Below, piece after piece: positions 37,687-62,029 of a stretch of DNA of 64,000 nucleotides; position 1 is the stretch's first letter, and each line of letters begins with the position of its first letter. The translations under genes were made by a program, and so were the position numbers. Under the pieces are notes generated by a model that saw nothing but the letters and a program-made list of their open reading frames with translations, had not been told where the DNA came from and did not search any database. The stretch comes from Spiroplasma gladiatoris (lineage in GTDB: Bacteria; Bacillota_I; Bacilli_A; Mycoplasmatales; Mycoplasmataceae), in contig NZ_CP038013.1 of NCBI RefSeq assembly GCF_004379335.1, forward strand, positions 620,001 through 684,000, given 5' to 3'.

Positions 37687-38301
37687 TTAACCTAATGAAT
37701 TAAAAAATAGATTTAAATCATCAATATTTTCTAAAGAATAATTTTGGCTTGATTTCATACTTTCAATTAAATCTTGACGATTTGCTAAAGTTTTTAGTTC
37801 AACATTTTCATTTGCAAAATTATTTGTAGCTTTTGAAAGTTGATAAGTAAATATTGCTTGAACACCTAAAACTTCAACACTTTCTTCTCTTAAAGCGTTA
37901 CATACATTTAAAACACTTTGTCCAGTTGAAATTAAATCTTCAATAACAACTACTTTTTGATTTTTACTAAATTTTCCTTCTATTTGAGAGTTTTTCCCGT
38001 GATTTTTTGATTGTGATCTGACATAAATCATTGGTAAATTCATTTTTTGACTTATCATTGCTGCAAATCCAATACCAGAAGTTGCAACTCCTGCAATTAA
38101 TTCAACATCTGGATAATTTAATTTAATATTTTCTACAAAAGCATCAATTATTACTTCTCTTTGCTTTACAAAGCTTAATAAAATTCTATTATCACAATAA
38201 ATTGGACTTATAATTCCACTTGCTCATTTAAATTTTTGATCAAAGTTTAGTGATATAGCGTTTGTTTCGATTAATAAATCTGTAATTTTAGTTTTTTGCA
38301 T
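37687..38301 (-). CDS. pyrE: Orotate phosphoribosyltransferase
   Basis: Makes orotidine 5'-phosphate from orotate and PRPP, 204 aa. The PRPP-binding motif VVVIEDLISTGQSVLNV is clear (residues ~118-134), with the orotate/PRPP loop RSQSKNHGKNSQIEG before it and ISPIYCDNR near the N-terminus. The ATG at 38301 lies within the end of pyrF (14-bp overlap in another frame), so the last two steps of UMP synthesis are translationally coupled. Confidence 0.95.
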
Positions 38302-38989
38302 TTTGTCATTCCCCTTTTATTTCTAAATATGTTTTATATGGTTCTTTTGCTGTAGTAATTTCTCTTCCTACAACAATATAATTTGATTTTGATTTTCTAG
38401 CAAGTTCAACACTTGCTACTCTTTTTTGATCACTACTTTGAACTTTATTTCTTATTCCTGGTGTTAAACAAATAAAATCTTTAGAAATATTTGTTTTTAT
38501 TTTTTCTACTTCAAATACAGAACATACAACACCATCGATTTTATTTTGATTTGCTAGTTTAGCTAAATTCAACGCTGCTTGTTCAATAGATAGTTCAATT
38601 TTTAACTCATCATTTAATATTTTTTTATCAATTGAAGTCAAACAAGTTATAGCTAATATTTTTGTATCACTATTTAATTCTTTTTTTGCTTTATAAGCGT
38701 ACTCTAACATTTCACTTCCACCAGATGCATGAACTGTAATTATTTTAGGATTTAAAGCTAAAATATTTTTTGTAGCTTTATAAACTGTATTTGGAATATC
38801 ATGAAGTTTTAAATCTATAAAAACATCATGATTTTGTTTTTGAATTTTTTTAACAATACTTGGTCCATATTTATAAAATAATTCCATTCCGATTTTTACA
38901 AATAGTTTTTCTTTTTTAAAATTTTTTAAAAAGTTTTTTACTTCTTTATAGTTTGAAAAATCTAAAGCAATTATTGGTTTTGTTTGCAT
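38288..38989 (-). CDS. pyrF: Orotidine-5'-phosphate decarboxylase
   Basis: Last step of UMP synthesis, 233 aa. The catalytic Lys-Asp array is seen in DVFIDLKLHDIPNTVYKA; VHASGG and LTPGIR follow in order, and YIVVGREIT is the phosphate-binding end. TGA is read as Trp six codons before the true stop (KGEWQNAKN), so a standard-code reading would end the protein early at 38306. It begins 21 bp after carB. Confidence 0.95.
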
Positions 38990-39010
38990 ATTTTTTTTCC
39001 TGTTCTATTT

Positions 39011-42000
39011 TTATATTGTATTTAATGAAAAGTTTCTATATTCTAAAACTTCTAAGATAGCTTCAACTGTATCAAAAGAAGTAAACAATGGAGTTTGAGA
39101 TTCAATTGCAGTTCTTCTAATAATTAAATCATCTTGACTATAAAGTTTTGATTGATCTTTATTTTTTGTATTAATTACTATGTTTATTTCTTTTGATTTT
39201 AATAAAGTTATGATATTATTTTCAACTTTTTTTTCTTCAATTTTACTAACAACACTTACTTCCAAATTATTATCTTGAAATTTTTTAGCAGTTCCTTTTG
39301 TAGCATAAAGTTTAAATCCTAAGTTTTTAAATCTTTTTGCAAGTTCAAGTGCATTATCTTTATCATCACCAATTGTAAATAAAATATTTCCGTGTTGTGA
39401 TATTGATATTCCTGTTGCTTCAATTGCTTTATATAATGCTTTAAAATAATTTTTATCTCAACCCATTACTTCACCTGTTGATTTCATTTCTGGTCCTAAG
39501 TCAACATCAACTTCTTTTAGTTTTAAAAATGAAAACACTGGAGCTTTAATATAAATATTATTTAAAGGATTTTTATTTTTAATTTTTTCTTCTAAATCTT
39601 TTAAAGTTTTTTCAAACATTACACAAGTTGCTAAATTAACTAAATTAACATTTGTAATTTTACTCATAAACGGAACTGTACGACTAGATCTAGGGTTAAC
39701 TTCGATTACAAATAAATCATTATCTTTAATAATAAATTGAATATTAATAATTCCTACAACTTTTAATTCTAAAGCAATTTTTTTTGAAGTAGTTAGTATT
39801 TTTTCTTCCATTTCTTTTGACAGATATTGAGGAGGATAAACTGCCATAGAGTCTCCAGAGTGAACTCCTGCTTTTTCAATATGTTCCATAATTCCAGGAA
39901 TATAAACTTCTTTTCCATCACTAACTAAATCAATTTCATATTCTTTTCCTTGAATATATTTATCAATTAAAACTCCATTATTATTACTTTCATAAATTGC
40001 ATTATCTATATAAGAGTAAAACTCACTTTGGTTATTTACAATATGCATAGCTTGTCCTCCAAGCACATAACTTGGTCTTAACAAAATTGGATAACCAATT
40101 TTTTCTGCAATTTTTAAAGCACTTTCTTTATCAAAAACTGTTTTTCCCATTGGTTGAAGTATATCTAATTTTTTTAATAAGTTTTCAAATTTTTCTCTAC
40201 TTTCTGCTGCATCTAAACTTGCTAATGAAGTTCCTAAAATTTTTACATTTTTTTGGTCAAGTTGTTTTGCTAAATTAATTGCTGTTTGTCCTCCAAATTG
40301 TAAAATAACTCCAACAGGTTTTTCATTATTTATTACATTCATTACATCTTCAATTGTTAAAGGTTCAAAAAATAATTTATCTGAAATTGAAAAGTCAGTA
40401 GAAACAGTTTCTGGATTTGAATTAATTACAATCGCTTTATAACCATGTTCTTGAATTGCTTTTATACATTGTACTGTTGCATAATCAAATTCAATACCTT
40501 GTCCAATTCTAATTGGACCAGATCCAATCACTACAACTGCTTTACTATCAAATGCCATACTTTCATTTTCAATTTCATAGCTACTATAAAAATAAGGTGT
40601 ACTAGATTCAAACTCTCCTGAGCAAGTATCAATCATTTTAAAAACAGGTGTTATATTATTTTTTAATCTTAAATTATATATTTCCTCTTCTGTTTTATTT
40701 CAAAGTTTTGCAATAATATAATCTGAAAAACCTTTTTTCTTGGCTTCTAACAAATTTTCTAAATTATTTTGATTATTTTTAAGTTCATTTTCTAATTCAA
40801 TGATGTTTACTAATTTTTGTAAAAAGAATAAATCAATTTTAGTTATTTCATTAATTTTTTCTATTGAAGTATTTCTTTTTATTAATTCTGCTAAAATAAA
40901 TAATCGATTGTGATTTGGAATTGCAATAAGTTTTAATAATTCATTTGTATTAAAGTTTGTAAATTCATTTGACTCTAAATGATATTTTTTTATTTCTAAA
41001 GATCTTATTGCTTTTAAAAGTGCTTCTTCAATATTTCTACCAATAGCCATTACTTCTCCAGTTGATTTCATTTGTGAAGTTAATCTAAAATCAGCTTTTA
41101 AAAATTTATCAAATGGTCATCTAGGAATTTTTGCAACAACATAATCTAAGGTTGGTTCAAAAAAAGCATAAGTAGATTTAGTTACAGGATTAATTATTTC
41201 ATCAAGATTTAATCCAACTGAAATTTTTGCAGATATTTTTGCAATGGGATAACCTGTTGCTTTACTTGCTAAAGCAGAAGATCTACTTACTCTTGGATTA
41301 ACTTCAATTACATAATATTGAAATGAATTTGGATCTAAGGCAAATTGAATATTACATCCACCCTCAATTTTTAAAGCTTTAATTATTTTTAAAGAAGAAT
41401 TTCTTAACATTTGATTATCTTGGTCACTTAATGTTTGAGTTGGTGCAAAAACAATTGAGTCACCAGTATGAACTCCAACAGGATCAAAATTTTCCATGTT
41501 ACAAACTATAATTGTATTATCACTTGCATCTCTTACAACTTCATATTCTATTTCTTTAAAACCTAATAAACTTTTTTCTAATAAAACATTTTTTAAAGGA
41601 GATTCTTGAATACCTTGAAGAACAATTTTTTTAAGCTCTTCATCGTTATTACAAATTCCACCACCTCCTCCACCAAGTGTAAATGAAGGTCTAATAATTA
41701 AAGGATAACCAATTTCGTTTGCAACTTTTAAAGCTTCTTGATAAGAGTTAACAACTTTACTTGGTGCAACTGGTTCATTTAGTTCTAACATTAATTCTTT
41801 AAATAATTCTCTATCTTCTGCTTGTTTAATCGCTTCAAGTTTTGTTCCTAATACTTCAATATTTAACTTGTTTAGTATTCCAGTTTTTTCAATTTCAACA
41901 ACCAAGTTTAATGCAGTTTGTCCTCCAAGTGTAGGAAGTATTGCATCAGGATTTTCTTTTATAATAATTTTTTCAACAAATTCAACTGTTAAAGGTTCAA

Positions 42001-42196
42001 TATAAATTTTATGTGCAATTTGTTTTTCTGTCATAATTGTTGCTGGATTAGAATTAATCAAAACAACTTCAAATCCTTCTTCTTTTAACGACATACAAGC
42101 TTGTGTTCCTGAATAATCAAACTCTGCTGCTTGTCCAATAACAATTGGTCCAGACCCTATTACTAATATTTTTTTAATATCATTTCTTTTTGCCAT
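39011..42196 (-). CDS. carB: Carbamoyl-phosphate synthase, large subunit
   Basis: Makes carbamoyl phosphate from bicarbonate, ammonia (from CarA) and two ATP. The protein is 1061 aa, full length and unbroken. The two halves each show an ATP-grasp domain: [33 protein letters not shown] in the first, [20 protein letters not shown] and [14 protein letters not shown] in the second. The C-terminal allosteric region is shorter in motifs ([10 protein letters not shown]). TGA is read as Trp at 5 or more sites. It follows carA after 1 bp. Confidence 0.97.
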
Positions 42197-42197
42197 A

Positions 42198-43274
42198 TTA
42201 ATCTTGTGTTCCTTTCTTTACTATTTTTATAAAATTATCAAATAAATAGAATGAATCACTTGTACCAGGACATGAATCAGGATGAAACTGAACTGAGAAT
42301 GCATTTAAACTTTGATATTTTAATCCTTCAATATCATTGTCGTTTAAACTTCTGTGAGTAATGATTGCTTTTTTTAGATCAACTGTATTTTCATCAACAA
42401 CATATCCATGATTTTGAGAAGTTATACAAGATTTATTGTTTATTAAATCTTTCACAGGATGATTAATACCTCTATGCCCAAATTTCATTTTTTTAGTTTT
42501 AAAATCATTTGCTAAAGCTAATAGTTGGTGACCTAAACAAATTCCAAAAATTGGAACTTTTCCCATAATTTCTTTAATGACTTGTATTTGTTCTGTTAAA
42601 ACTTCAGGATCACCAGGACCATTACTTAATAAAACTCCATCAACATTCATTTCTAAAATCTCTTTTGAAGAAATATTATAAGGAGCAACGATTATATTAC
42701 AATTTCTTTTAAGTAATTCTTTTGTTATTGAAATTTTTAAACCATAATCAATTAATAAAATATTTCACTTTCCTCCATAAATATAATATTTATTTTTTGT
42801 TGAAACTTGTTCGACACTATTTGAAGGAATATTATAATCTTTTATTTTTTGTATATAAATTTGTAAATCTTTTTTGTTACAAACAATTGCAGCTTCCATA
42901 ACTCCATGTTGTCTTATTTTTTTTGTTAACATTCTTGTATCTATATCACAAATTCCTGTGATGTTTTTTAATTTTAAAAATTCATCTAATGAAAGATTAT
43001 TTCTAAAGTTAGATCCTTGTTTTGCGAATTCTTTTACAACAACTCCGTTACACTTTGGAGTTAAAGATTCATTATCTTCTAAATTGACTCCATAATTTCC
43101 AATTAATGGATATGTAAAAGTTATTATTTGATTATTAAAACTTTGATCTGTAATTGATTCTTGATAACCTGTCATAGCTGTTGAAAATACTAATTCTGCA
43201 ATTACATCATTATTAGCACCAAGTTGTTTTCCTTCTAAAATTGTATTATCAGATAATACTAATCATCTTTTCAT
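42198..43274 (-). CDS. carA: Carbamoyl-phosphate synthase, small (glutaminase) subunit
   Basis: Class I glutamine amidotransferase supplying ammonia to CarB, 358 aa. The nucleophile Cys is in [15 protein letters not shown], the His in [12 protein letters not shown]. The N-terminal domain has [12 protein letters not shown] and GNYGVNLED as expected. The start, ATG 43274, overlaps the 3' end of pyrC by 16 bp in another frame, with GAAGGAGAA as ribosome-binding site. Confidence 0.96.
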
Positions 43275-44530
43275 TTGACTTCTCCTTCAAAAATTGTTAA
43301 TAAGTTTTTTGCAAATAATTCTTTATTTAAAAATGGTGTGTTTTTTGATTTAGATTTTATATTTTCTTTGTTTAAAACGTAACTACTTTCTAAATCTCAT
43401 ACTACTAAGTTTGCAATATGATTTTCTTTTATCTCATTTTGATTTAACTGAAATATTTTGTTTGGATTAGTGTGCATTTTTTTTATAACTTCTTTTAAAG
43501 ATAAAATATTTTTTTTAACTAACTCTGTATAAATTAAATTAAAACTAAAATCCAATCCAATCATTCCAAAATTTGCTTTTTTAAAACTTATTTTTTTTTC
43601 ATCTCAATGATGAGGTGCGTGATCTGTTGCAATACAATCAATTGTTCCATCTTGTAATCCTTTAATTAAAGCTAGTCTATCTTTTTCTTTTCTAATTGGA
43701 GGATTAATTTTATACAAACCATTATCTTCTTTAAAATCATTTGATTGTAAAAATAAATGATTAGGTGTGACTTCACAAGTTATGTTTAAGTTTTTTTTAT
43801 ACTTTCTAATTAAATCAACAGATTTTTTTGTAGTTAAATGTCCTACATGATACTTACAATTAATTTTTTTTAAAAGTTTTATATCTCTTTTTAATTGATT
43901 AACTTCTGATTTTTGACTAAATCATTTTAATTTTTTTTCTTTTGCTAACAAACATTTATCGATGTACTTATTTTTTTTTATTTTTTCTGTTTCAAGATGA
44001 ATTGAAATTAATAAATCATATTTTTTTATTTGTTCTAAAACTTTTTTCATAGTTTTTTTATTTTGAATTCCATAACCATCATTAGAAAAATATTTTGCAC
44101 CCGCTAATGAAAGTTTTTCAAAATCAACTAACTCATTTGTATTTAAATTTTTTGTAACTGCACACATTTGTTTTATGTTTAAAAAACTTTTTTCTTTTAT
44201 TAATTTTTTTATATTTTCATAACTTTGTACATTATCTGGAACAGGATTTAAATTTGCCATTGCACAAAATGTTGTTACTCCACCTTTTAAAGCACTATTT
44301 GTAACACTAATTAAATCTTCTTTGTAATCATAACCAGGTTCTCTTGTGTGAACATGCACATCAATTAATCCTGGAGTTACAAAATTATTTTTTGCATCAT
44401 ACATTTCAAAACTATTATCATGTTTAATATTATTCTCAATTTTTATAATTTTTTTATTTTTTATTAAAATATCTTTTACAACTAAATTATCATTTTCAAA
44501 AAACTTTGCATTTTTAATTAATAAGCTCAT
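43259..44530 (-). CDS. pyrC: Dihydroorotase
   Basis: Closes carbamoyl aspartate to dihydroorotate, 423 aa, type I (PyrC of gram-positives). The metal ligands are in [16 protein letters not shown] (residues ~51-66) and TDHAPHHWDEK, with [10 protein letters not shown] between. The C-terminus ends EVKWKDD with a TGA Trp. The ATG overlaps the pyrB stop by 1 bp (TAATG). Confidence 0.95.
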
Positions 44531-45426
44531 TAAAATTTTTCCTTTAAGATTTCTTTTAAAATCGCCATACGCATATATAAACCATTATTCATTTGATCTA
44601 AAATTTTTGATTTTTGAGATTCTACTAAACATGATTCAATTTCAACATCTCGATTAACAGGACAAGGATGCATAATAATTGCTTTATCATTTAGTTGTTG
44701 ATATCTTTTTTGATTTAATCCATATTTATTTAAATAATCAATTTCAATTTTATCTTCTTGTGATTGTCTTTCGTTTTGAATTCTTAATAACATTAAGACA
44801 TCAATTTGTGAAATAATTTCATCAATATTTTTATACTCTCCATAAATTTGATACTCACTTTTATATCATTTTTTTGGACCAAAAAAGTATATTTTTGCAC
44901 CCAGTGATTTTAATATTTTCATATTTGAATGTGCTACTCTAGAATATTTTAAATCTCCTAAGATTGCAATTTTTAAGTTTTTAAAATTTTTAAAATTTTC
45001 ATAAATTGTCATTAAGTCTAACAAAGATTGAGTTGGATGTTCTCCTTCTCCATCTCCTCCATTAATAATTGAACAATTAATATTTTTACTTTCAATTAAT
45101 TTTTCATAATATTTTTTTTGTTGATGTCTAATTACTAAACAATCAACTTCTAAACAACTAAAAGTTAAAACCGTATCATATAAAGTTTCTCCTTTATTAA
45201 TTGAACTAGTTTGTGAATTAAAATTTATAACATCCATATTTAATTTTTTTTGAGCTATTTCAAAACTTTTATGAGTTCTTGTACTATCTTCAAAAAATAA
45301 ATTTGCAACAATTGTTTTTTGTTTAACTCCAATTATATTTTTTGTAGCTTTTAATTCTAAAGCGGTTTTAATTAAGTTCAAGATTTGTTCTTCATTTAAA
45401 TCACCAATTTGCAATAAATGTTTCAT
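44530..45426 (-). CDS. pyrB: Aspartate carbamoyltransferase, catalytic subunit
   Basis: Joins carbamoyl phosphate and aspartate, 298 aa. The carbamoyl-phosphate motif is [13 protein letters not shown] (residues ~44-56), the [16 protein letters not shown] segment and [11 protein letters not shown] near the C-terminus are typical of the unregulated Bacillus-type trimer. No pyrI regulatory subunit is present. It follows pyrD by 12 bp. Confidence 0.96.
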
Positions 45427-45438
45427 ATCTTCTCCTTG

Positions 45439-46389
45439 TTATTTAATTTTTTGACTTTCAATATATCACTGTCTAGTTTGTTTAACTTTTAAAATTATTT
45501 CTTCTACTGAATTGTAATTATATTTTTGTAAGTCTTTTTCTAGATTAATAACCATTTTATATGCAGCTAATGGATCTCACATTATTGCACTTCCTATTCC
45601 TACAGCACTTGCTCCAGCTAAAAGCATTTCAATAACATCATCAGTATTTGAAATTCCTCCCACTCCAATTATTGGTATATCGACTGCATTTGAAACTTGA
45701 TCAACAACTTTTAAAGCAACTGGTTTTAAAATTTTTCCACTCATTCCCCCGTATTGTCTTGGCAAGTTTGATTGACCAGAATTTAGATTTAAACTCATTC
45801 CCGAAGGAGAGTTTAATAATACAACTGCATCAATATTTTGTTCTTTACAAATTTTTGCAGTAGTAACAACATCAGCATTATTATTAGATATTTTTACAAA
45901 TAAAGGTTTTTTACATACATTTCTTATTGATTTTAGTAAATCACCAAAACCTTCTACATCAGATTCAAAAATAATACTTTTATTTTGTACATTTGGACAT
46001 GAAACATTTATTTCAATTGCACTGACACATTCAATTGGATTTAGCATTTCTACCATTCGTACATATTCTTCTTTTGATTCTCCTGCAATACTTACAATTG
46101 TTGGAACATTCATTTCTTCTATAAAAGGTATTTTCATTTCAATAAATCTTTTAATACCAACATTTTTTAATCCAACTGAATTAATATATCCGTTTTCAAT
46201 TTCAACTAATCTAGGACTTTGGTTTCCTTTTCTTGGATTAAATGTTACAGTTTTTGTTGTAATTGCTCCTAAAATATCTAAATCATGAAAAGTTTCTAAA
46301 TATTCTCCATGAACAAATGGTCCAGAAGCTATTGTTATAGGGTTTTTTAAGAATAATTGTGCTACTTTTGTTTTTAATTTTGTATCCAT
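45439..46389 (-). CDS. pyrD: Dihydroorotate dehydrogenase, class 1B-like
   Basis: FMN enzyme oxidising dihydroorotate to orotate, 316 aa. It shows LKNPITIASGPFVHGEYL, TKTVTFNPRKGNQSPR, catalytic Cys in INVSCPNV and PIIGVGGISNTDDVIEMLLAGASAVGIG. The sequence pattern fits class 1B (NAD-linked), which normally needs the iron-sulfur/FAD subunit PyrK. No pyrK is in this operon, so it is either elsewhere or replaced. First biosynthetic gene of the operon; ATG 46389 has GAAGGAGAA. Confidence 0.93.
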
Positions 46390-48359: not shown

Positions 48360-51300
48360 GTTCTACTACTACATAATTTTACAGGGTACCATAACAGATG
48401 GAAGTTATGCAACAAGAACACTTACGTTCTACTACTACATAATTTTACAGGGTACCATAACTACCACCTCTTTTAGAAAATATGCCAAGTTGTTCTACTA
48501 CTACATAATTTTACAGGGTACCATAACTCTTCCCTTGTTTCTGATTAACAGATCTATTGTTCTACTACTACATAATTTTACAGGAAACCATAACTACGGA
48601 TTTGTTCCATTTGTCAACCATTAAGTTCTACTACTACATAATTTTATAGGGTACCATAACAAGGAGAAATATATGTTTAAAGCTTTATTAGTTCTACTAC
48701 TACATAATTTTACAGGGTACCATAACCACTTTTAATAAATTCTTCTTTTTGATTTTGTTCTACTACTACATAATTTTACAGGGTACCATAACTAGAAGAA
48801 TTAGACAAACAAGATGCTATTAGTTCTACTACTACATAATTTTACAGGGTACCATAACTTGTAAACTTGCATTTTTATATAGTCATTAGTTCTACTACTA
48901 CATAATTTTACAGGGTACCATAACAATGAGCTACGTCAAGATGGTGGACAAATGGTTCTACTACTACATAATTTTACAGGGTACCATAACAACGAATATA
49001 TTGCTAGTTTGATATTTGTTGTTCTACTACTACATAATTTTACAGGGTACCATAACTAATGAAAGATTGTGATTTATGTATAGAATGTTCTACTACTACA
49101 TAATTTTACAGGGTACCATAACCATCCTTCTTAGTTCTTTCTAGTTTTTTGAGTTCTACTACTACATAATTTTACAGGGTACCATAACATGGGTCACAAT
49201 GAAAAGTTATGAGTGTTTGTTCTACTACTACATAATTTTACAGGGTACCATAACTCTGTAAGTTACTTGCCTTACATTTATATAGTTCTACTACTACATA
49301 ATTTTACAGGGTACCATAACATGGATATGTTTAAAACCAATTCTGTTGATGTTCTACTACTACATAATTTTACAGGGTACCATAACTAGTTTGCATTTCA
49401 TTGTTGTCTCATTGTGGTTCTACTACTACATAATTTTACAGGGTACCATAACAATTTCTTTGTTAAATGCCTTTCATCTAAAGTTCTACTACTACATAAT
49501 TTTACAGGGTACCATAACAACCTTTTTCAAATTTTCGATCTAGTCAAAGTTCTACTACTACATAATTTTACAGGGTACCATAACTCTGCAAGGAGTGAGT
49601 GACAATATTTTTATGTTCTACTACTACATAATTTTACAGGGTACCATAACTCTTGTTTTCAATTAAAATTTTTATTAATAGTTCTACTACTACATAATTT
49701 TACAGGGTACCATAACAATAAGTGGTGAAACTTATATTGATTTTTTGTTCTACTACTACATAATTTTACAGGGTACCATAACATGAAGATAGATTTAGAA
49801 AAAGATTTACAAGTTCTACTACTACATAATTTTACAGGGTACCATAACGCACTTGGAATATCGTTAATGTCAATTGTTGTTCTACTACTACATAATTTTA
49901 CAGGGTACCATAACCTGTTGTGATTAAATTAAATGTATATACTTGTTCTACTACTACATAATTTTACAGGGTACCATAACTATTAAAAGAGTGAACATTC
50001 ATTTTTTTAATGTTCTACTACTACATAATTTTACAGGGTACCATAACCTGTTTCTTTATTTTCTATTGATATTAATAGTTCTACTACTACATAATTTTAC
50101 AGGGTACCATAACAATAAGTGGTGAAACTTATATTGATTTTTTGTTCTACTACTACATAATTTTACAGGGTACCATAACTAGCCTTTTGTTCTTCAAATT
50201 CTTTTCAATGTTCTACTACTACATAATTTTACAGGGTACCATAACTACACAAACTTTAAGATTAACCCATTTGTAGTTCTACTACTACATAATTTTACAG
50301 GGTACCATAACGAAGGAGCAATTTTAAGAATTGACGGAGAAGTTCTACTACTACATAATTTTACAGGGTACCATAACTATAACTTATATTAAAAACAACA
50401 TTTTTTAGTTCTACTACTACATAATTTTACAGGGTACCATAACCCTCATTCGCTTCTTCTCAACTATCTTCGTGTTCTACTACTACATAATTTTACAGGG
50501 TACCATAACTTAATTTATATCTAATTTTAAACATTTTTAGTTCTACTACTACATAATTTTACAGGGTACCATAACAACACCTTGAGTTTTAATATAAGGT
50601 ATATTGTTCTACTACTACATAATTTTACAGGGTACCATAACGTTGATTTAGCAGATAAATTAAAAGATTTTGTTCTACTACTACATAATTTTACAGGGTA
50701 CCATAACTCTGTAAAGTACTTGCCTTACATATATATAGTTCTACTACTACATAATTTTACAGGGTACCATAACGCAAACGAGTTGGACAATGAAGTAAAG
50801 ATAGTTCTACTACTACATAATTTTACAGGGTACCATAACTCACTAGAAATATTGTAATCAATTCCTTCGGTTCTACTACTACATAATTTTACAGGGTACC
50901 ATAACTATCAAATATAATTTTTCTTCCTATGAACCGTTCTACTACTACATAATTTTACAGGGTACCATAACACTACAATTATGTTGTTTTACATAAAACT
51001 TGTTCTACTACTACATAATTTTACAGGGTACCATAACTCATTAATGTTTAACCTTTTTACTCTCTTTTGTTCTACTACTACATAATTTTACAGGGTACCA
51101 TAACAAAGGCTTACTAATGTTTAAGGTATCTAACGTTCTACTACTACATAATTTTACAGGGTACCATAACTAAGAAATCAAATGGTTGCAAAGTCAATCG
51201 GTTCTACTACTACATAATTTTACAGGGTACCATAACAATAAACTCATTTGAAAACAAATTTGTCTTGTTCTACTACTACATAATTTTACAGGGTACCATA

Positions 51301-54300
51301 ACGGCAAATTTAAATATGTTGGATTAGATAGCGTTCTACTACTACATAATTTTACAGGGTACCATAACAACAATACCCTAAATTTTTTTTGCTTAATAGT
51401 TCTACTACTACATAATTTTACAGGGTACCATAACTTGTAAGTCTTGGTGGAAACCCACTTGTTTGTTCTACTACTACATAATTTTACAGGGTACCATAAC
51501 ATGACTTTGTTGATTGTCATTGTGTATAATGTTCTACTACTACATAATTTTACAGGGTACCATAACTATCTCCCATTATATTTTATAATTTGCAATGTTC
51601 TACTACTACATAATTTTACAGGGTACCATAACATAAGTAGTATTTAGGCATAGTTTCTTGTAGTTCTACTACTACATAATTTTACAGGGTACCATAACAA
51701 GTGAAGAATTTTACCTTGATTAGGTTTAGTTCTACTACTACATAATTTTACAGGGTACCATAACTAGTTAAAGTCTTAATAACAGATTGAGCATGTTCTA
51801 CTACTACATAATTTTACAGGGTACCATAACCAAACAACATATGTTTTGGCAAAAAGATAAGTTCTACTACTACATAATTTTACAGGGTACCATAACATCT
51901 AGTTGCAAAACTTTTTAAATTACAAGGTTCTACTACTACATAATTTTACAGGGTACCATAACTGAATAACAACTCATACTTTTAATTTTTTTGTTCTACT
52001 ACTACATAATTTTACAGGGTACCATAACGTTTTTGGGTCAATATAAAAATAAACTCAAGTTCTACTACTACATAATTTTACAGGGTACCATAACTTATCT
52101 GATGATCGATTAGTATTTTCACAAGTTCTACTACTACATAATTTTACAGGGTACCATAACATACTATCAATAAAAGTTTCTTTTAGTTCTGTTCTACTAC
52201 TACATAATTTTACAGGGTACCATAACGTATAAATATGTATATTTCTTTTTATATCAGTTCTACTACTACATAATTTTACAGGGTACCATAACCACTAGTT
52301 GGTGGTGAAATTGCTGCTAAAAGTTCTACTACTACATAATTTTACAGGGTACCATAACTGGTTTTGTATAAATCATAAAGCAAATATCGTTCTACTACTA
52401 CATAATTTTACAGGGTACCATAACACATAACAACATCTAATAACTCAGTTAAAAGTTCTACTACTACATAATTTTACAGGGTACCATAACATAAAAACAT
52501 ATGTAATACACTATTTTTATGTTCTACTACTACATAATTTTACAGGGTACCATAACTATGAGATGATATTAATTGATAGGAGAAAAGTTCTACTACTACA
52601 TAATTTTACAGGGTACCATAACCAAGGACATTAATTAGTTAATGTTCCTTACGTTCTACTACTACATAATTTTACAGGGTACCATAACTTTTATAATGAA
52701 TTAGATAATTTTAAAAAAGTTCTACTACTACATAATTTTACAGGGTACCATAACCATCACTGTCTTCATCTATTACAATGCAGTGTTCTACTACTACATA
52801 ATTTTACAGGGTACCATAACTATCTCATCAACCTAATTTGTAGTGATTGAGTTCTACTACTACATAATTTTACAGGGTACCATAACATAAAATGTTTTCA
52901 TAAGCATCTCTTTATCGTTCTACTACTACATAATTTTACAGGGTACCATAACTTAGAAATAGTAAACACATGCAAAGAAAATGTTCTACTACTACATAAT
53001 TTTACAGGGTACCATAACTAGTTGATATTAAAACCAATCGTGTATTAGGTTCTACTACTACATAATTTTACAGGGTACCATAACGGAAGGCCATAATATC
53101 AAGGAATAGCTTTTGTTCTACTACTACATAATTTTACAGGGTACCATAACTTAAAAAAGATGAAGATGACTTTGAATTTGGTTCTACTACTACATAATTT
53201 TACAGGGTACCATAACTCAATTTGTAGTTGGTTTGCTTTAATAAAAGTTCTACTACTACATAATTTTACAGGGTACCATAACAGAACAATTACAAAATAT
53301 ATTAGATATATTGTTCTACTACTACATAATTTTACAGGGTACCATAACTATTTTGATATTTTTTTACATTTAATTTTTGTTCTACTACTACATAATTTTA
53401 CAGGGTACCATAACAACGAGCTACGTCAAGATGGTGGACAAATGGTTCTACTACTACATAATTTTACAGGGTACCATAACGTCCTGGCGAAGGTTATGCA
53501 ATCCCAAAAAGTTCTACTACTACATAATTTTACAGGGTACCATAACTATCTCCCATTATATTTTACAATTTGCAATGTTCTACTACTACATAATTTTACA
53601 GGGTACCATAACTGTAGCAATTTTCTATACAATTGCTACATAGTTCTACTACTACATAATTTTACAGGGTACCATAACACAAAAGAGCAATTAATAGAAG
53701 CATTAACAGTTCTACTACTACATAATTTTACAGGGTACCATAACCCAACGAGCAAAGCCAAAATTTTTGAAAAAGTTCTACTACTACATAATTTTACAGG
53801 GTACCATAACTTGATATATGGTTGCTAAAAATAATAACGAGTTCTACTACTACATAATTTTACAGGGTACCATAACGATTGTATTTTTTGTTTAATGAAT
53901 AAACAAGTTCAACTACTACATAATTTTACAGGGTACCATAACGATTTATATCATTTCTAATTGCTACTAAAAGTTCTACTACTACATAATTTTACAGGGT
54001 ACCATAACAGATTGTAAAGTAACTTGATAGACTATCTCGTTCTACTACTACATAATTTTACAGGGTACCATAACAAACAAGGGATGAGTGAGTTTTAAAC
54101 TTATGTTCTACTACTACATAATTTTACAGGGTACCATAACTTGTAATATATTGTTTTGCTAAAACTCCCAGTTCTACTACTACATAATTTTACAGGGTAC
54201 CATAACAACAATGAAAAGGTAACAATCAAGGTATGGGTTCTACTACTACATAATTTTACAGGGTACCATAACACTCCACCATACAAATAAAAAGACTTGA

Positions 54301-54734
54301 TTGTTCTACTACTACATAATTTTACAGGGTACCATAACAATCAACAATTTCCAGATTTTGATATTTTTGTTCTACTACTACATAATTTTACAGGGTACCA
54401 TAACACCATTGTACTATCAATCATTAATGTTTTAGTTCTACTACTACATAATTTTACAGGGTACCATAACTAGCGAATGTACTTACAAATTAGTTATAAC
54501 GTTCTACTACTACATAATTTTACAGGGTACCATAACACATTGTTTCATAATCTTCTGTTAAATCTAGTTCTACTACTACATAATTTTACAGGGTACCATA
54601 ACGGTCAATGTATTGTAATATTTTCTTTGTTTGTTCTACTACTACATAATTTTACAGGGTACCATAACATGTTAATTCAACTGCTCATTCCATTTCATGT
54701 TCTACTACTACATAATTTTACAGGGTACCATAAC
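48360..54734 (-). CRISPR. Type II-A CRISPR array, 97 repeats and 96 spacers
   Basis: Counted along the sequence: 97 repeats of 36 bp and 96 spacers, 93 of 30 bp and three of 31 bp (before 48559, 50012 and 51069). In the transcribed (minus) direction the repeat begins GTTATGGTACCCTGT and ends GTAGTAGTAGAAC. Minus-strand transcription is supported by the tracrRNA antirepeat, by the ATTTGAG leader at the high end, and by repeat decay at the low end (repeats at 48559 and 48625 each differ from consensus). One further variant is at 53907. Newest spacers are therefore at high coordinates. Repeats are otherwise identical, which points to an active array. Spacers read as AT-rich, phage-like sequence; several encode open frames. 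Confidence 0.99.
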
Positions 54735-54770
54735 CTCAAATCAAGTGTTTTTAAAAAATAATTATAAGTT
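54735..54770 (-). promoter_or_regulatory. Minimal CRISPR leader with ATTTGAG and array promoter
   Basis: Only 27 bp separate the first repeat from csn2. On the minus strand the bases touching the repeat are ATTTGAG (54735-54741), the sequence known in type II-A leaders to position Cas1-Cas2 integration. A TATAAT box (54761-54766) overlaps the csn2 stop codon, about 27 bp before the repeat; a weak TGTTTT could be the -35 element 17 bp further up. Confidence 0.75.
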
Positions 54771-55691
54771 TAAAAGGTAATGGAAAACAGGATAATTTAT
54801 TTCTAAATTTTTACTATTATAACTACTTATTAAGTTTTTAGTATTTAAAAGTAGCTCATTATAAAAGTCATTTTCTAAAGTACAATTTGAAAAATTCATA
54901 TAAAACTTTAAATTATCAATAATAACTGATAAATCTAGAAACTTATTATCTATTCATATTTTTAAATTTTCTAGATTTAAATCATCTTCATAAATAAACT
55001 TGTCACTAACAATTGTAAATTTTTTTAATTCTTTTATTTCATCAAAAAACTCTTTTATTTCTGTATAATTTAGCCCAAAAAATGGATTTACAAATAAAAA
55101 ATGTAAATTTTTATCATCAATTATTAATAAATTTTTTAATATTTCAATATATATTATTCTTAACTTAGCTTGATTTAAATAAGTGTTGGTTTCATTATCA
55201 TCATTATTTTGTAACTTTAAAATTGTTTGATCACAAATATAGTTTATGATTTGATCTTGAATCTCTATAGTTATTTTTAAACCTAATTTAGATTCTAAAT
55301 TAGTAATTAAATTTTCAATTATTTTGAGTTCAGTTAAATCAATTGTATTAATAAACCCAAATAAAGTTGATAAACTTTGAGAAGAAAAAGCATCATAAGT
55401 TATACAAAGATTTAATAATTCTTTTAAAATAGTTTTACTTCCTCCACAAATACTTTTAGAAAAATCCATAAAGTTGGGTACCTTTATTAATTTAGTTGTT
55501 GATTTATCTATCATAATATCATTTTCTTGCATTTTAATTTCATAATCTGGACTTGAAAATTTGTTTAAAAAACTTAAATTTAAAGCTAGTTCTAAATCAT
55601 TTATAGTATCTAAATTATTTATAATAAATACATTATTGTTTGTAAAATTAAAGTTAATACTTTTATTACTATTTTTATTTAAAATTTTCAT
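54762..55691 (-). CDS. csn2: Csn2-like CRISPR adaptation protein (long form)
   Basis: A 309-aa protein in the csn2 position, directly after cas2 (last base of cas2 stop shared) and before the array. It has no motif I can name with certainty, but it is acidic/lysine-rich with a beta-rich start (INFNFTNNNVFIINNLDTI) and a helical middle like Csn2. Canonical Csn2 is ~220 aa; longer Csn2 groups exist in streptococci and mycoplasmas. TGA at 54952 is Trp, and a standard-code reading would lose the last 64 residues. It should bind DNA ends during spacer capture together with Cas1-Cas2 and Cas9. Confidence 0.8.
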
Positions 55692-56014
55692 TATATTTCT
55701 ATAAGCCTCCTATCATCATTTATTAATTCATTATTATTTTTTTTACCAACAACAATCTTAATATTTTGATATTGTTTTTCTGTAATAATTAGAAACCTTA
55801 CATTACCAAGCTTAGGTAAAAATTTATTAATTCTTTTAATAACAAAATCAACACTTTCTTTGTTGTAACAAATTTTTGAATAAATTGAATATTGCATCAT
55901 GTGAAACCCTTCTTTAAATAAGTTATTTCTAAATTTATTATAAGATCTTACATTTTCTTTAGAATCAAAAGGTAAATCGTAAAATACCATTAATCTCATA
56001 AATCTATAGCTCAT
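55691..56014 (-). CDS. cas2: CRISPR-associated endonuclease Cas2
   Basis: Small ferredoxin-fold subunit of the spacer-integration complex, 107 aa. The first strand has LMVFYDLP with the conserved Asp, followed by RSYNKFRNNLFKEGFHMMQ and YSIYSKIC as in II-A Cas2. The C-terminal strand (KIVVG) pairs with Cas1 in the complex. It overlaps the end of cas1 by 11 bp. Confidence 0.95.
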   Translation of the reverse strand: MSYRFMRLMVFYDLPFDSKENVRSYNKFRNNLFKEGFHMMQYSIYSKICYNKESVDFVIKRINKFLPKLGNVRFLIITEKQYQNIKIVVGKKNNNELINDDRRLIEI

Positions 56015-56909
56015 AATATTCTACTGATGAACTTATAGGATAAATTATATGATTATTGTATTTATCTTCAAAAAAGTTTAAAACCATATCAACATATTTA
56101 TCAATAGCATTTGTTAAATAGATTTTATTATTACCATAAATAACTTTAGAGTTTAAAATATTTATTAATTCTAATTTTGTAGATCTAGAAAAATAATCAA
56201 TTTGTGTTACATATTTATAAACATAATTATCAACAATTGGGCGAAATGGTTCCATTAAATCATCTGCAAGAGCAAAAGCATTGTACATATTATGATGAAA
56301 TAAGGCTATGCTTGGATGAAGCCCTTTTGAAGTAATTGATCTGATAAATGCATTTCTTATAATTGTATAACCAAAGTTTAAAGCTGCATTTATGTGATTT
56401 TCTTTTTCTCTTGTAAAAGTGTTTCCAAATAGTTCTTTAAAATAAACCTTAGCAGCATGTCCTTCTCTATTTGTTGAATCACTAAATTTCATTTCTTCAA
56501 TATATTTGTATAACAAGTTAACTTTTTCTAGACTTTTTAAGTTAACTTTTAATATATCAATTTGTGCTTCAATTTTTTGTTTTACAATTTGTGTTCATAA
56601 ATATAATTTATCTTCTTTTTTTCAATTTAATTGATTATTAATAATTTTTAATTGTAAGTGATTTGCTTCAATTGGTTGAATAATCGATATTGGTTTTAAC
56701 TCTACATCACAAATTAAAGTTAAAATCTTTTTTTGAGCAAGTTTATTAATAATTCTTGTAGTAACAACAGTTTTATAATTTTCAAATAATATCGCATTAA
56801 TATCATCAAGTGGGATATGATACTTAACATTTGCACTTTCAACAACTAAATTATTTAAAAATAAATTTATTCTTTCTCCGTCTTTAATAATTATTGTTTT
56901 TCAAGACAT
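56004..56909 (-). CDS. cas1: CRISPR-associated integrase Cas1
   Basis: Integrase that inserts new spacers, 301 aa. The metal ligands fall at Glu149 (TNREGHAAK), His205 (SIALFHHN) and Glu220 (ADDLMEPFRP), the usual trio, so it should be active. The N-terminal domain begins MSWKTIIIKDGERI, typical for II-A. TGA is read as Trp at residue 3 and others. No strong ribosome-binding site is visible before ATG 56909; it starts 7 bp after the tracrRNA terminator. Confidence 0.96.
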
Positions 56910-56916
56910 TTTTTAA

Positions 56917-57006
56917 TAAAAAAAGAGGAATAAATTCCTCAGTTACGGCATTAAAGCCTTATATATGATAGTCCTGTAAAATTATGTAGTAGTAGAACTC
57001 ATATAC
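56917..57006 (-). ncRNA. tracrRNA
   Basis: Minus strand, between cas9 and cas1. It begins with 26 bases identical in sense to the low-strand repeat (56973-56998), so it pairs fully with the crRNA repeat. Then ACTATCATATA can form the lower stem with crRNA GUUAUGGU, leaving an AC / ACU bulge. Next comes a short hairpin GGC-TTTAAT-GCC (nexus-like) and a terminator GAGGAA-TTTA-TTCCTC followed by seven T (56918-56940). Order antirepeat, bulge, nexus, terminator is what Cas9 tracrRNAs show. The 5' end near 57006 is inferred from the promoter. Confidence 0.9.
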
Positions 57007-57012
57007 ATAATT

Positions 57013-57042
57013 AATATATCACATAATATTTTAATTAGTCAA
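57013..57042 (-). promoter_or_regulatory. tracrRNA promoter overlapping the cas9 stop
   Basis: TTGACT (57037-57042) and TATATT (57013-57018) spaced 18 bp on the minus strand. The -35 box uses the last two codons and the first stop base of cas9. Start of transcription is expected around 57006, just before the antirepeat. Confidence 0.7.
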
Positions 57043-60000
57043 GATATTTTATTTTTGTTCTTGTTAAATTTGATGTAACAAGTCTGATTTTTTTCATTTT
57101 CTTAATAGTCTTGAAAATTCTTTTACCTTTTTCAACACTTTTATTTAAAAATTTGAACTCAAAACTTTCTGAATTCTTATTAAATCCCACAACGATATAA
57201 TTTAAAATTTCACCATCATATTCAAACATCAATTCATTATTTTTAAATAATGTGAATTTTTTCTTATATGTTTCATCAATTTTATATAATAATTTTTCTT
57301 GCTCATACTCTTTTGTTTTAAAATTAATATTTGAGTTATTTTTATTACTTACAAAATATGCTACTTTATGAGTAATTGGTAAAACTTTATACAAATTATA
57401 TTGTTGTGAATAAAATAAGTCTCAACCTAAAGTATTTGATCCTGTCATTACAATTTCTTTACCTTTTTTAATATTTTTAAATTTATGAGTAATTTTTGTA
57501 TATTGATTAACAACTCCATTATTGTATTTTAAATATCTTATGTTTGGTGGATTTTTTTCATTGGATTGTTTTAAAATCTTTTCATTTAATTCATAAACAA
57601 AATGATGAAATGGGTTTTTAACTGGTTTATTATCTTTATCAACATCATTTATATAAGTATCATATATTTTTTTTAAATGATTAAATGTTTTTGGATCTGA
57701 CTCATAAACTAATAAATCTTTATAATCTATGGTAAATAACTTATTAATTTTTTTTATTTTTTCTGAATCTTTTGATAATAAATCTATTTTTTCAATTTTA
57801 TATAGATTATTGTCAATTACTTTGCAACTATAAATAGTTTCATTAAACATCATTTTGTTTGAACTTTTTTCTATCTTTTTAGTAAATTTATAATCAAAAC
57901 TATTAATGTCATTAACGATTAAGTTTATTTCTTCTCTTTTAATAATTTCTTTTTCATCTAATTCTCCAATTATTTTATTCATAGTTCTTCCATCATAAAT
58001 ATCAATAATTGGAGCTAATGCACAAATTGTTGCATCCACTGCATGATGTTTAAAATCATCACGATCTTTTTTAGGTAAATATAAGAAGTTATTTCTTATA
58101 TAATTTGTAAATCCCCCATTAATTGTTTTAATTGAATAAGGTTTTTTTAATTCTTTTTTAAAAAAAGTTAAATAGTTTTTTACTTCTAAAGTTGCATATC
58201 TAGTATCATTTAAGTTTCTATTAATAAAACTTTTTTTAACTTCTGTGTCATTTATATCTTGTTCAAATATTAAATTTTGATACTTATTATAACCATACTT
58301 TCCAAATTTTTTACTTCCAACATAATTTATATACATTAATGATTTAAATTGTTCTCAATCACGATGTATTTCTCTAAAGTATTCATATGGTGTTTTTTTA
58401 CCCTTTTGTTGATTTTCATTTTGTAATACCAATACTTTATTGGTTCTAGAATCGTCTAATGACACTGAAAAAGGAATAATATGATCAATTTCACAATAAT
58501 TTGGATCATTAAAAAGTCTAGTTATATCTATTTTTTCACCAGAATACACACATTTACCATCTTGTTCATTTAATAAAGTTAATTTTAATCTTGTTTTAAA
58601 ATCAATTCTTTTAGTGTTTTGATTATAATTTTTTTCAATTTCAGTTCTTTCTTTTTCATTTTTCTTTTGAATTTCATTAATATATTTTTTTCTATCTTCT
58701 GAATTTGATTCTCTTGCTAATTCAATTACAATATCTTTAATTTCAATATCAGACATTTTTTCAATTTCTTTAATGATTTTTAAACTTTCAATTAAAGATC
58801 TTTTAACAACTGGAGATATATACATCTCTGAAATTTTTTGTCTTAAAACAGGCATTTTTGTAAATTTTCTATCTATTTTGATGTTGTAATCTGGTTTTAT
58901 ATTATTTTCAGAAAAAATTTGCATGTGATTTTTATTTTCATATCACATTTCTTCAATAGCAATATTCATAGTTTTTGCACTTAGACTATGAGTACCTGTT
59001 AAACTTATTAAACTAATTGCTTCAATTTGTTTATCATCTAATAAATTGCTATTTATTTTTAAAAGTTGTTCTTTTCTAGAATCTGAACTTTGAAAAACAG
59101 TTAGTATTTCTACAATTTTATCTAATAAATCAATATTTTTTAAACTTATAAAATCATACTTTAAATTTGAACTTATTAAAATACTTCTAATTTTATTAAT
59201 AGATTCAAATTTTGTGAAATTTGGTTTTTCATCTTTATCGATTCGATAACCAGTAATATCACTTTCTTTTACTTTTAATAACTTTGCAATAATTTTTAAA
59301 GTAATATTTTTACTTTTAGTACCATCATGGTTTATTACAGATTCAATTACTTCATACTTTTGATCATAAGTTAAACCGTTTTCAACACCATTAATCTTTA
59401 AATTACATAAATCATTTAAAATATTAAATAAGTATGAAGTCATTGAATGTTTTGGTGCTCTTTTTTCTTTACTATTATATGTATCATAACCAGAAAGACG
59501 TTCAAAAAATTCTGATTCATCTTTTCAGCCATACTCACTTTTAGTTGTTTTTGAACTAGTAGTTCATCCAGGACCATCAAAATATTGTCTTTTTCTTTCG
59601 TATAATTTTATAAAACTTTCTTTAAATTCTTCATTTATTAAACCATTAGCTATTTGTGTATCTAATATTTTTTCGACTTCTTTTTTATATCAATCATGAG
59701 CAATTAATGCATCTTCTGCTTTTAATCCTCGATACTTACCAAATGTTTTAAAATTGTTTGCTTGAATATCAACAGGAAGTTTATCTTGTTTTGCATTAAT
59801 TTCATCTAAACTAACATCTTCTTTTTTTTCTTTTTTTAATTCCATTAAATCGTCTTTATAATTAAAACTTCCTCTTTTTTTAGTGTAATTATAAAGTATT
59901 AACATTAATTCTTGTAAACTTATATTATTTTCAAGTGATTTTTTTCTAACTTCTAAATAGTCAATATTAAAATCAAGTTTATAAAAATCTTCATAACTAT

Positions 60001-60244
60001 TTAAAAAATCAAACTTTACAAATAAATTTAGTAAATCTCTTTTTCTTAAAACTTTTCTTCTTAGATTTCTTCTTCTTCCTCTTTGCATTCTTCTATCAGA
60101 AGTAGTAGAAGTTTTTTGACCTCCAGCATTTGCTTCACTAAATAAACGTGATCCTGCATTTATGATTTTTTTATTTTCTATATCATAAATTGATCATCCA
60201 ACTGAAGCTATACCTATATCTAATCCTACATTTACTTTTTTCAT
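57035..60244 (-). CDS. cas9: Cas9 endonuclease, compact (1069 aa), type II
   Basis: RNA-guided DNA nuclease. RuvC-I is [12 protein letters not shown] with Asp9; an arginine-rich bridge helix [16 protein letters not shown] follows at ~54-70. RuvC-II is IVIELARES with Glu508; HNH has [10 protein letters not shown] with Asp587/His588 and Asn611; RuvC-III is FKHHAVDAT with His734 and Asp737. All catalytic residues are kept. The length is near that of small Cas9s such as S. aureus, despite a csn2 next door. Fully open only if TGA is Trp (at least five sites). ATG 60244 has AAAGGAG. A PAM cannot be deduced from this window. Confidence 0.97.
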
Positions 60245-60524: not shown

Positions 60525-61898
60525 TTAACTTTCTATGTTAAATAAATCTTTTAAAATATGTGTTGAAAATCCACTAATTAAAACTACATTTTTTTCATTT
60601 TTAACCACTGGAAAACTTTGATCAATATCAAAGTCAACATTTCAAAAAATAATTTTTGGCAACTCAAGATTATAACTTTTAAATTCGTTTTTTCAATGTT
60701 CAAAGTTACTATCTTGATTATTTGATGTAGCTTGGTTAAACTCCATATCACTAATAATTAAAATATATTTTGGATTATCAGAGAAATTATTATTATTTTT
60801 CATAGATAATATTATTTTTTTAAATACTAGATCGATATTAGTCGTGCCAATTGCATCATGCGTTTTTAAAATATTAAAATCATCAATAAAATTACCTTTT
60901 AATTTAATAAATTTAGGTTGACTTTCAAATTCAATCAAAACATTTTTAAATACGCCTTGATTTTGATGTGCTAAAAACATTCCTAAACCCATTGAATTGT
61001 ATAAAGGCAACCCTTCCATAGAACCACTAAAATCACACACTGGTAAAATATTTGTGTTTTCTGAACTACAATTTTTTTCATATTAATTCAATATGCAGCA
61101 GCTTCATTTATATCATAAAAAGCATGTTCGATAATTTCGTATGCAAAAAAGTTATTAGCATTTAAATTATTTGAATCACTAATTGATTTATTTATAAAAT
61201 CATTGTATTTATCAAAATCATTTCTACTAAAAGCATTTGCATATTTTTTCAAAGATTTACCTGATAAGTTACTATAATTTATACTTTGATAATCTTTGAT
61301 TCTTAAGTTATTTTCAAAAAGGTTTAATTTAACTCTTAAACTTGTAAGTAATTTACGATATGCTTTGTAATCAAAGTTTTTATCAAAATTTAGTTTAACT
61401 AAGTTAACAAATTTTTTAGCTAAAGTTATTTGTTTATAACTTGAAGCGTTGATTGAAGGCATTCATTTTGAAATTAATGAAATACTTTTATCACTTCGAT
61501 TAACTTCGCTAATTAAAGTTGAATAAATTAATTCAATTAAACGCAAATCTGTTGAATTAATTGCAAGATTAATTGCATAATCATATCTACCTATTTTAAA
61601 ATAACATCAAATAAAACTTGACGATCAACTTTATTACTTAAAAAATTAATCATCTTTTTGATACTCTTCTTTCTCCTTTTCCTCCTCTTATATCTAAGTA
61701 GTTTAAAAAGTTAAGAATAAATAGTTTGTTATTTTCTTCTCAAGCTTCATCAAAAACTTCTTTTAATAATTCGACAGGATAAAATTGTAAATTTTTAGAA
61801 AAAAGATCTAAGTTTTTATTTAAAGTAGATAAATAAGCAATAGCATTTTTGGTATTTTTTATTTGGTTAAGTTGATTTTGTAATTCAGTTAAAACCAT
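60525..61898 (-). pseudogene. DUF2828 (TROVE/vWA-like) gene with three frameshifts
   Basis: Read through three frame changes the region encodes a full DUF2828 protein of ~458 aa: YLDIRGGKGERR, KIGRYDYAINL, ISKWMPSINASSYKQITL, YRKLLTSLRVKLNLFE, the metal-binding VCDFSGSMEG, IISDMEFN and the final KIIFWNVDF..VLISGFSTH. All three shifts are single missing bases in homopolymers (T6 at 61640-61645, A4/T4 at 61594-61601, A7 at 61072-61078); adding one base to each restores the frame exactly. So it is either a recent pseudogene or carries sequencing errors. Start ATG 61898 behind GGGGG. Function of the family is unknown; the architecture recalls Ro60. Confidence 0.85.
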
Positions 61899-62029
61899 AT
61901 AAATACCCCCTAAAAGACACAAAAAAATAATTTTTAAAAAATTAAATATTTTTAAGTTTTTATTATTTTTTACAAAGATTTTTAATACTATTTATAACTC
62001 GTTAATTTTTATTATACACTTATTTATGT

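What the first reader, a model, noticed from the sequence alone, without database searches (positions are those of the whole stretch)
48360..60244. Complete, apparently active type II-A CRISPR-Cas locus in a minimal genome
cas9, tracrRNA, cas1, cas2, csn2 and a 97-repeat array occupy about 12 kb. All Cas9 and Cas1 catalytic residues are present, 94 of the 97 repeats match the consensus, and repeat decay is mostly at the old end. Most mollicutes have lost CRISPR, and an array of 96 spacers is very large for an organism of this kind. A ~1070-aa Cas9 beside a 309-aa Csn2 is also an uncommon pairing.
Basis: partly seen in the sequence, partly recalled or inferred. Interest (0 to 1): 0.85.

Follow-up and report, generated by a model that had tools for sequence, protein, structure and literature searches.

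The report
Ordinary CRISPR-Cas9 immunity locus in Spiroplasma
This is a complete bacterial immune system of the CRISPR-Cas9 kind, with 96 stored records of past invaders, in an insect-associated Spiroplasma; it looks intact and recently used, but the same kind of system has already been reported from several close relatives.

Summary
A type II-A CRISPR-Cas locus (cas9, tracrRNA, cas1, cas2, csn2, 97 repeats, 96 spacers) lies at 48360-60244, all read on the minus strand. Catalytic residues are present and 94 repeats are identical. The csn2-proximal leader ends in the canonical ATTTGAG anchor. The tracrRNA pairs with the repeat, with double-sided compensatory changes at 13 pairs across relatives. 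The 309-aa protein matches no Csn2 sequence model, but its predicted fold's best PDB match is Stu0660, the long Csn2 of S. thermophilus.

The claims of rarity do not hold. Ipoutcha et al. 2019 (PMC6882279) report type II-A systems in six Spiroplasma species. Four relatives here carry the identical repeat; another has 97 spacers, and M. gallisepticum reaches 105. Long Csn2 with a short Cas9 is the known CRISPR1/Csn2b arrangement.

Past activity is supported by purifying selection, no identical spacer shared with a relative whose Cas9 is 98% identical, and variants of the same protospacers in one array. No self-targeting was found. New here: some spacers of this species group resemble genes of an unclassified Spiroplasma prophage, and a weak hint that the PAM has G at position 3. 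Verdict: new member of a known kind; present activity untested.

The parts
57035..60244 (-). cas9 (1069 aa; closest solved structures are SaCas9)
   Evidence: NCBIfam TIGR01865 603 bits; phmmer best PDB hits SaCas9, E 7e-125; dN/dS 0.17 against G008
56918..56998 (-). tracrRNA: anti-repeat (56964-56998), nexus GGC...GCC, terminator hairpin followed by a U-run
   Evidence: anti-repeat; fold, z -13.1; 13 pairs with double-sided compensatory change across relatives; ends are approximate
56004..56909 (-). cas1 (301 aa)
   Evidence: TIGR03639 type II Cas1, 286 bits; E. faecalis Cas1 5xvn, E 4e-50
55691..56014 (-). cas2 (107 aa)
   Evidence: TIGR01573; type II-A Cas2 6qxf, E 2e-21
54762..55691 (-). 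csn2, long (Csn2b-like) form, 309 aa
   Evidence: no sequence-family match; AlphaFold model pLDDT 79; best fold match Stu0660 3zth, Foldseek E 1.2e-6 and VIA Z 11.8
54735..54761 (-). leader, 27 nt, ending CTTGATTTGAG against the first repeat
   Evidence: ATTTGAG in 7 of 9 loci compared here, one-base variants in the other two; identical to the Group 1 type II-A leader end of PMC5382924
48360..54734 (-). CRISPR array, 97 repeats and 96 spacers; crRNA repeat GTTATGGTACCCTGTAAAATTATGTAGTAGTAGAAC; newest spacers at 54734, oldest at 48360
   Evidence: orientation from tracrRNA and leader

Best explanation
A complete type II-A CRISPR-Cas adaptive immune locus of the long-Csn2 group. Cas1-Cas2-Csn2 (with Cas9) insert 30-nt spacers at the ATTTGAG|repeat junction beside csn2. 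The array is transcribed on the minus strand, in the same direction as the cas genes. tracrRNA anneals to each repeat and RNase III cuts the duplex. Cas9 loaded with crRNA:tracrRNA cuts matching phage or plasmid DNA. Shown by sequence here: all parts, orientation, leader anchor, RNA pairing with covariation, purifying selection, spacer turnover, and similarity of some spacers to a Spiroplasma prophage. Inferred from the family: acquisition, RNase III processing, DNA cleavage, present-day activity.
For: Gene content and catalytic residues. Csn2 fold. Leader motif. tracrRNA fold and 13 double-compensated pairs. dN/dS 0.04-0.17 for the four cas genes against G008. 97 near-perfect repeats; no identical spacer shared with G008 although its Cas9 is 97.8% identical. 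In-register variant spacer pairs 18/48, 20/88, 61/83, with dissimilar neighbouring spacers. No self-target outside the array in the own genome. Spacers 20 and 88 encode NELRQDGGQM, matching the head protein of prophage L040 (NELKQDGGQM).
Against: No RNA or interference data. No exact protospacer was found in phages, plasmids or relatives. Csn2 is not recognised by any sequence model, so its identification rests on synteny and a moderate-confidence model. No array promoter was examined; the leader is only 27 nt.
Confidence: 0.93

Rival explanations
1. The locus is structurally intact but no longer immunises: expression is off, or acquisition has stopped, and the array is a relic.
For: No exact protospacers found. 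Related loci are degraded: the G005 cas9 and cas1 frames are broken, and PMC6882279 reports degraded loci in other Spiroplasma.
Against: Low dN/dS in all four genes, identical leader-proximal repeats, complete spacer turnover against G008, and a tracrRNA that still covaries with the repeat.
Confidence: 0.06
2. The 309-aa gene next to the array is not Csn2 but an unrelated protein.
For: No Pfam or NCBIfam match for any of nine homologues and no sequence match in the PDB.
Against: Best fold match is Stu0660, and 19 of 20 Foldseek hits below E 0.001 are Csn2-type chains; Stu0660 also ranks first by VIA, Z 11.8, though tied within 1 with Gabija GajA. Same position, strand and length as csn2 in nine loci.
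Confidence: 0.02

Closest known systems
Type II-A CRISPR-Cas of Spiroplasma litorale TN-1, S. helicoides TABS-2, S. turonicum Tab4c (PMC6882279, PMC5073277, PMC5034139)
   Same: Same gene order, identical 36-bp repeat, near-identical tracrRNA, Csn2 of 308-309 aa, same leader end. Genomes matched by exact or near-exact length; the S. helicoides array also by published coordinates.
   Different: Cas9 65-69% identical, no shared spacers, 36-44 spacers rather than 96.
Streptococcus thermophilus CRISPR1 (St1Cas9 with long Csn2, Csn2b group; PMC3936727)
   Same: Short Cas9 with long Csn2, ATTTGAG leader end, array in the same direction as cas genes; Stu0660 is the best fold match to this Csn2.
   Different: Cas9 sequence is nearer SaCas9 (421 against 288 bits); repeat sequence and host differ.
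Staphylococcus aureus Cas9 (SaCas9)
   Same: Closest solved Cas9, aligned over nearly the full length.
   Different: PAM-contacting residues not conserved among mollicute Cas9, as PMC6882279 reports; not re-tested here.

Membership tests
Type II CRISPR-Cas | Cas9 with RuvC and HNH nuclease motifs intact | tested here: met
Type II CRISPR-Cas | tracrRNA with anti-repeat complementary to the array repeat | tested here: met
Type II-A | cas9-cas1-cas2-csn2 operon | tested here: met
   Csn2 by synteny and fold only
Type II-A | Csn2 recognised by a curated sequence model | tested here: inconclusive
   none of nine homologues matches Pfam or NCBIfam; divergence can explain this
Type II-A | 36-nt repeats and array in the same direction as the cas genes | tested here: met
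Type II-A (Group 1 / long Csn2) | leader end ATTTGAG next to the first repeat | tested here: met
   against PMC5382924
Functional CRISPR-Cas system | spacer acquisition, crRNA processing and target cleavage | not testable with these tools
   needs RNA-seq and interference assays

The most novel reading that the evidence does not exclude
The Spiroplasma type II-A group (this species and G008, S. litorale, S. helicoides) defends largely against a so far unclassified Spiroplasma prophage lineage (L040 type), with a Cas9 that needs a PAM with G at position 3, and the last ~60 residues of Cas9 are being diversified between two close species, perhaps shifting the PAM.
Probability: 0.2. Interest if true: 0.4.

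Novelty: new member of a known kind. Interest (0 to 1): 0.2.

Why it matters
It adds a very complete, apparently recently used Cas9 locus to a group already known to hold such systems. Its large spacer set, and those of four relatives with the same repeat, could help work out which viruses attack these spiroplasmas and what PAM their small Cas9 needs; PMC6882279 could not define a PAM for mollicute Cas9.

Tried and rejected
Array against phages and plasmids: only weak, chance-level matches. Prophage terminase against viral contigs and phages: no relatives. Naming relatives through genome contigs: two scans found nothing, so species names come from published genome lengths. Rfam: no hit. Csn2 against Pfam, NCBIfam and PDB sequences: none. 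Spacers of relatives against genomes gave few strong targets. Considered and rejected: transcription of the array on the plus strand, because nexus and terminator follow the anti-repeat only on the minus strand and the ATTTGAG anchor is at the csn2 end.

Full report
Observation. The window lies in a single 1,164,642-bp contig, 99.6% complete. The array at 48360-54734 has 97 repeats of 36 bp, 94 of them identical, with 96 spacers of 30-31 nt. It is the only array of this repeat in the genome. cas9, cas1, cas2 and csn2 occupy the rest up to 60244, on the minus strand. All Cas9 and Cas1 catalytic residues are present. The mutated repeats are numbers 13, 93 and 94 from the leader, so decay is mostly but not only near the old end, and the last repeat is exact.

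Orientation and RNA. A 35-nt anti-repeat lies between cas9 and cas1. Only on the minus strand is it followed by a nexus (AAGGCUUUAAUGCC) and a terminator hairpin with a U-run. The repeat therefore reads GTTATGGTACCCTGTAAAATTATGTAGTAGTAGAAC, and the array runs in the same direction as the cas genes. Repeat joined to tracrRNA folds at -56.8 kcal/mol, z -13.1. Across seven repeat/tracrRNA pairs from this group, 13 paired positions show double-sided changes that keep pairing, and where repeats differ the cognate pair is the most stable. The first two repeat bases are unpaired, as PMC6882279 noted for S. helicoides and S. litorale.

Leader. The 27 nt between the csn2 stop and the first repeat end in CTTGATTTGAG. 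Of nine loci in this group, seven end in ATTTGAG and two in a one-base variant. ATTTGAG is the Group 1 type II-A leader end, which PMC5382924 finds in 87 of 167 loci and considers ancestral, together with a long Csn2 of about 320 aa.

Csn2. The 309-aa protein and eight homologues match no sequence family. An AlphaFold model from nine sequences (pLDDT 79) has Stu0660 of S. thermophilus as best match by Foldseek (E 1.2e-6) and by VIA-align (Z 11.8). The VIA margin is narrow (Gabija GajA scores 11.5), so the Foldseek list and synteny carry the call. Stu0660 is, to my knowledge, the long Csn2 of CRISPR1; PMC3936727 describes S. thermophilus CRISPR1 Cas9 as representing type II-A with ~350-aa Csn2b. 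St1Cas9 is 1121 aa.

Relatives. G008, G012, G014 and G016 carry the identical repeat. Cas9 relatives at E 1e-20 occur in 22 of 119 genomes, own included; in a tree of 21 of them the window's Cas9 sits with G008, then with the other spiroplasmas of identical repeat. PMC6882279 lists type II-A in S. litorale, helicoides, turonicum, gladiatoris, taiwanense and alleghenense. The window's own species was not identified; S. gladiatoris is a guess from that list.

Signs of activity. Against G008 the four cas genes have dN/dS of 0.04-0.17, while none of the 96 spacers is identical to any of the 37 of G008. G008 spacer 36 is a homologue of own spacer 92 with the same 3' end, and G008 spacer 4 resembles own spacer 82. 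Own spacers 18/48, 20/88 and 61/83 are 1-3-mismatch versions of the same 30 nt in the same register, with dissimilar neighbours. Independent re-acquisition from variant phages explains this best; duplication followed by mutation is not excluded. No self-targeting was found.

Targets. G006 holds a prophage (L040: terminase, major head protein) that G008 spacers 18, 22, 25 and 36 match with 1-4 mismatches, against none for reversed spacers of G008. S. helicoides spacers 10 and 17 and S. litorale spacer 24 match this family. At peptide level, own spacers 20 and 88 encode NELRQDGGQM, against NELKQDGGQM in the L040 head protein; six spacers score 45 or more, against none of the reversed controls. 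Most of the 96 spacers remain without a known target. Bases 3' of the homologous sites: TGGAAA (own 20/88), TCGAAT (G008 36), GAGATG (G008 22), CCGTTA and AGGTAA (G014), AAGTTT (G012), but AAAAGA (G008 18) and TCTAGC (G008 25). G at position 3 in six of eight is a hint only: the sites are diverged homologues and the position was picked after looking.

Noted on cas9. Own and G008 differ by about 1% over most of cas9 but by 12.5% in 57000-57199, the end of the predicted PAM-interacting region, and by about 5% in the flanks. Recombination is the simplest reading, not tested further.

Verdict. A real, complete, probably functional type II-A system; ordinary for its group and already described in kind.

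Noticed in passing
60525-61922: A DUF2828/DUF7788 gene on the minus strand is broken into three frames; the copy beside cas9 in G008 is broken too.
   Followed up: partly
37687-46389: A complete de novo pyrimidine gene set (pyrE, pyrF, carB, carA, pyrC, pyrB, pyrD) on the minus strand, near glyA; from memory, unusual among mollicutes.
   Followed up: partly
57000-57199: The end of cas9 differs 12.5% from G008 while the rest of cas9 differs about 1% and the flanks about 5%, suggesting exchange of the cas9 body or of its C-terminal tail.
   Followed up: partly
L040:1249-14666: A Spiroplasma prophage with terminase and head protein; terminase relatives in G013, G017, G018 and G026, none in the own genome or in the relatives with the identical repeat, and none in phages or viral contigs.
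   Followed up: partly
L027:6685-13124: G004 holds a 98-repeat array in which most of a block of spacers (29-34) recurs further on (36-41, 60), suggesting array recombination.
   Followed up: no
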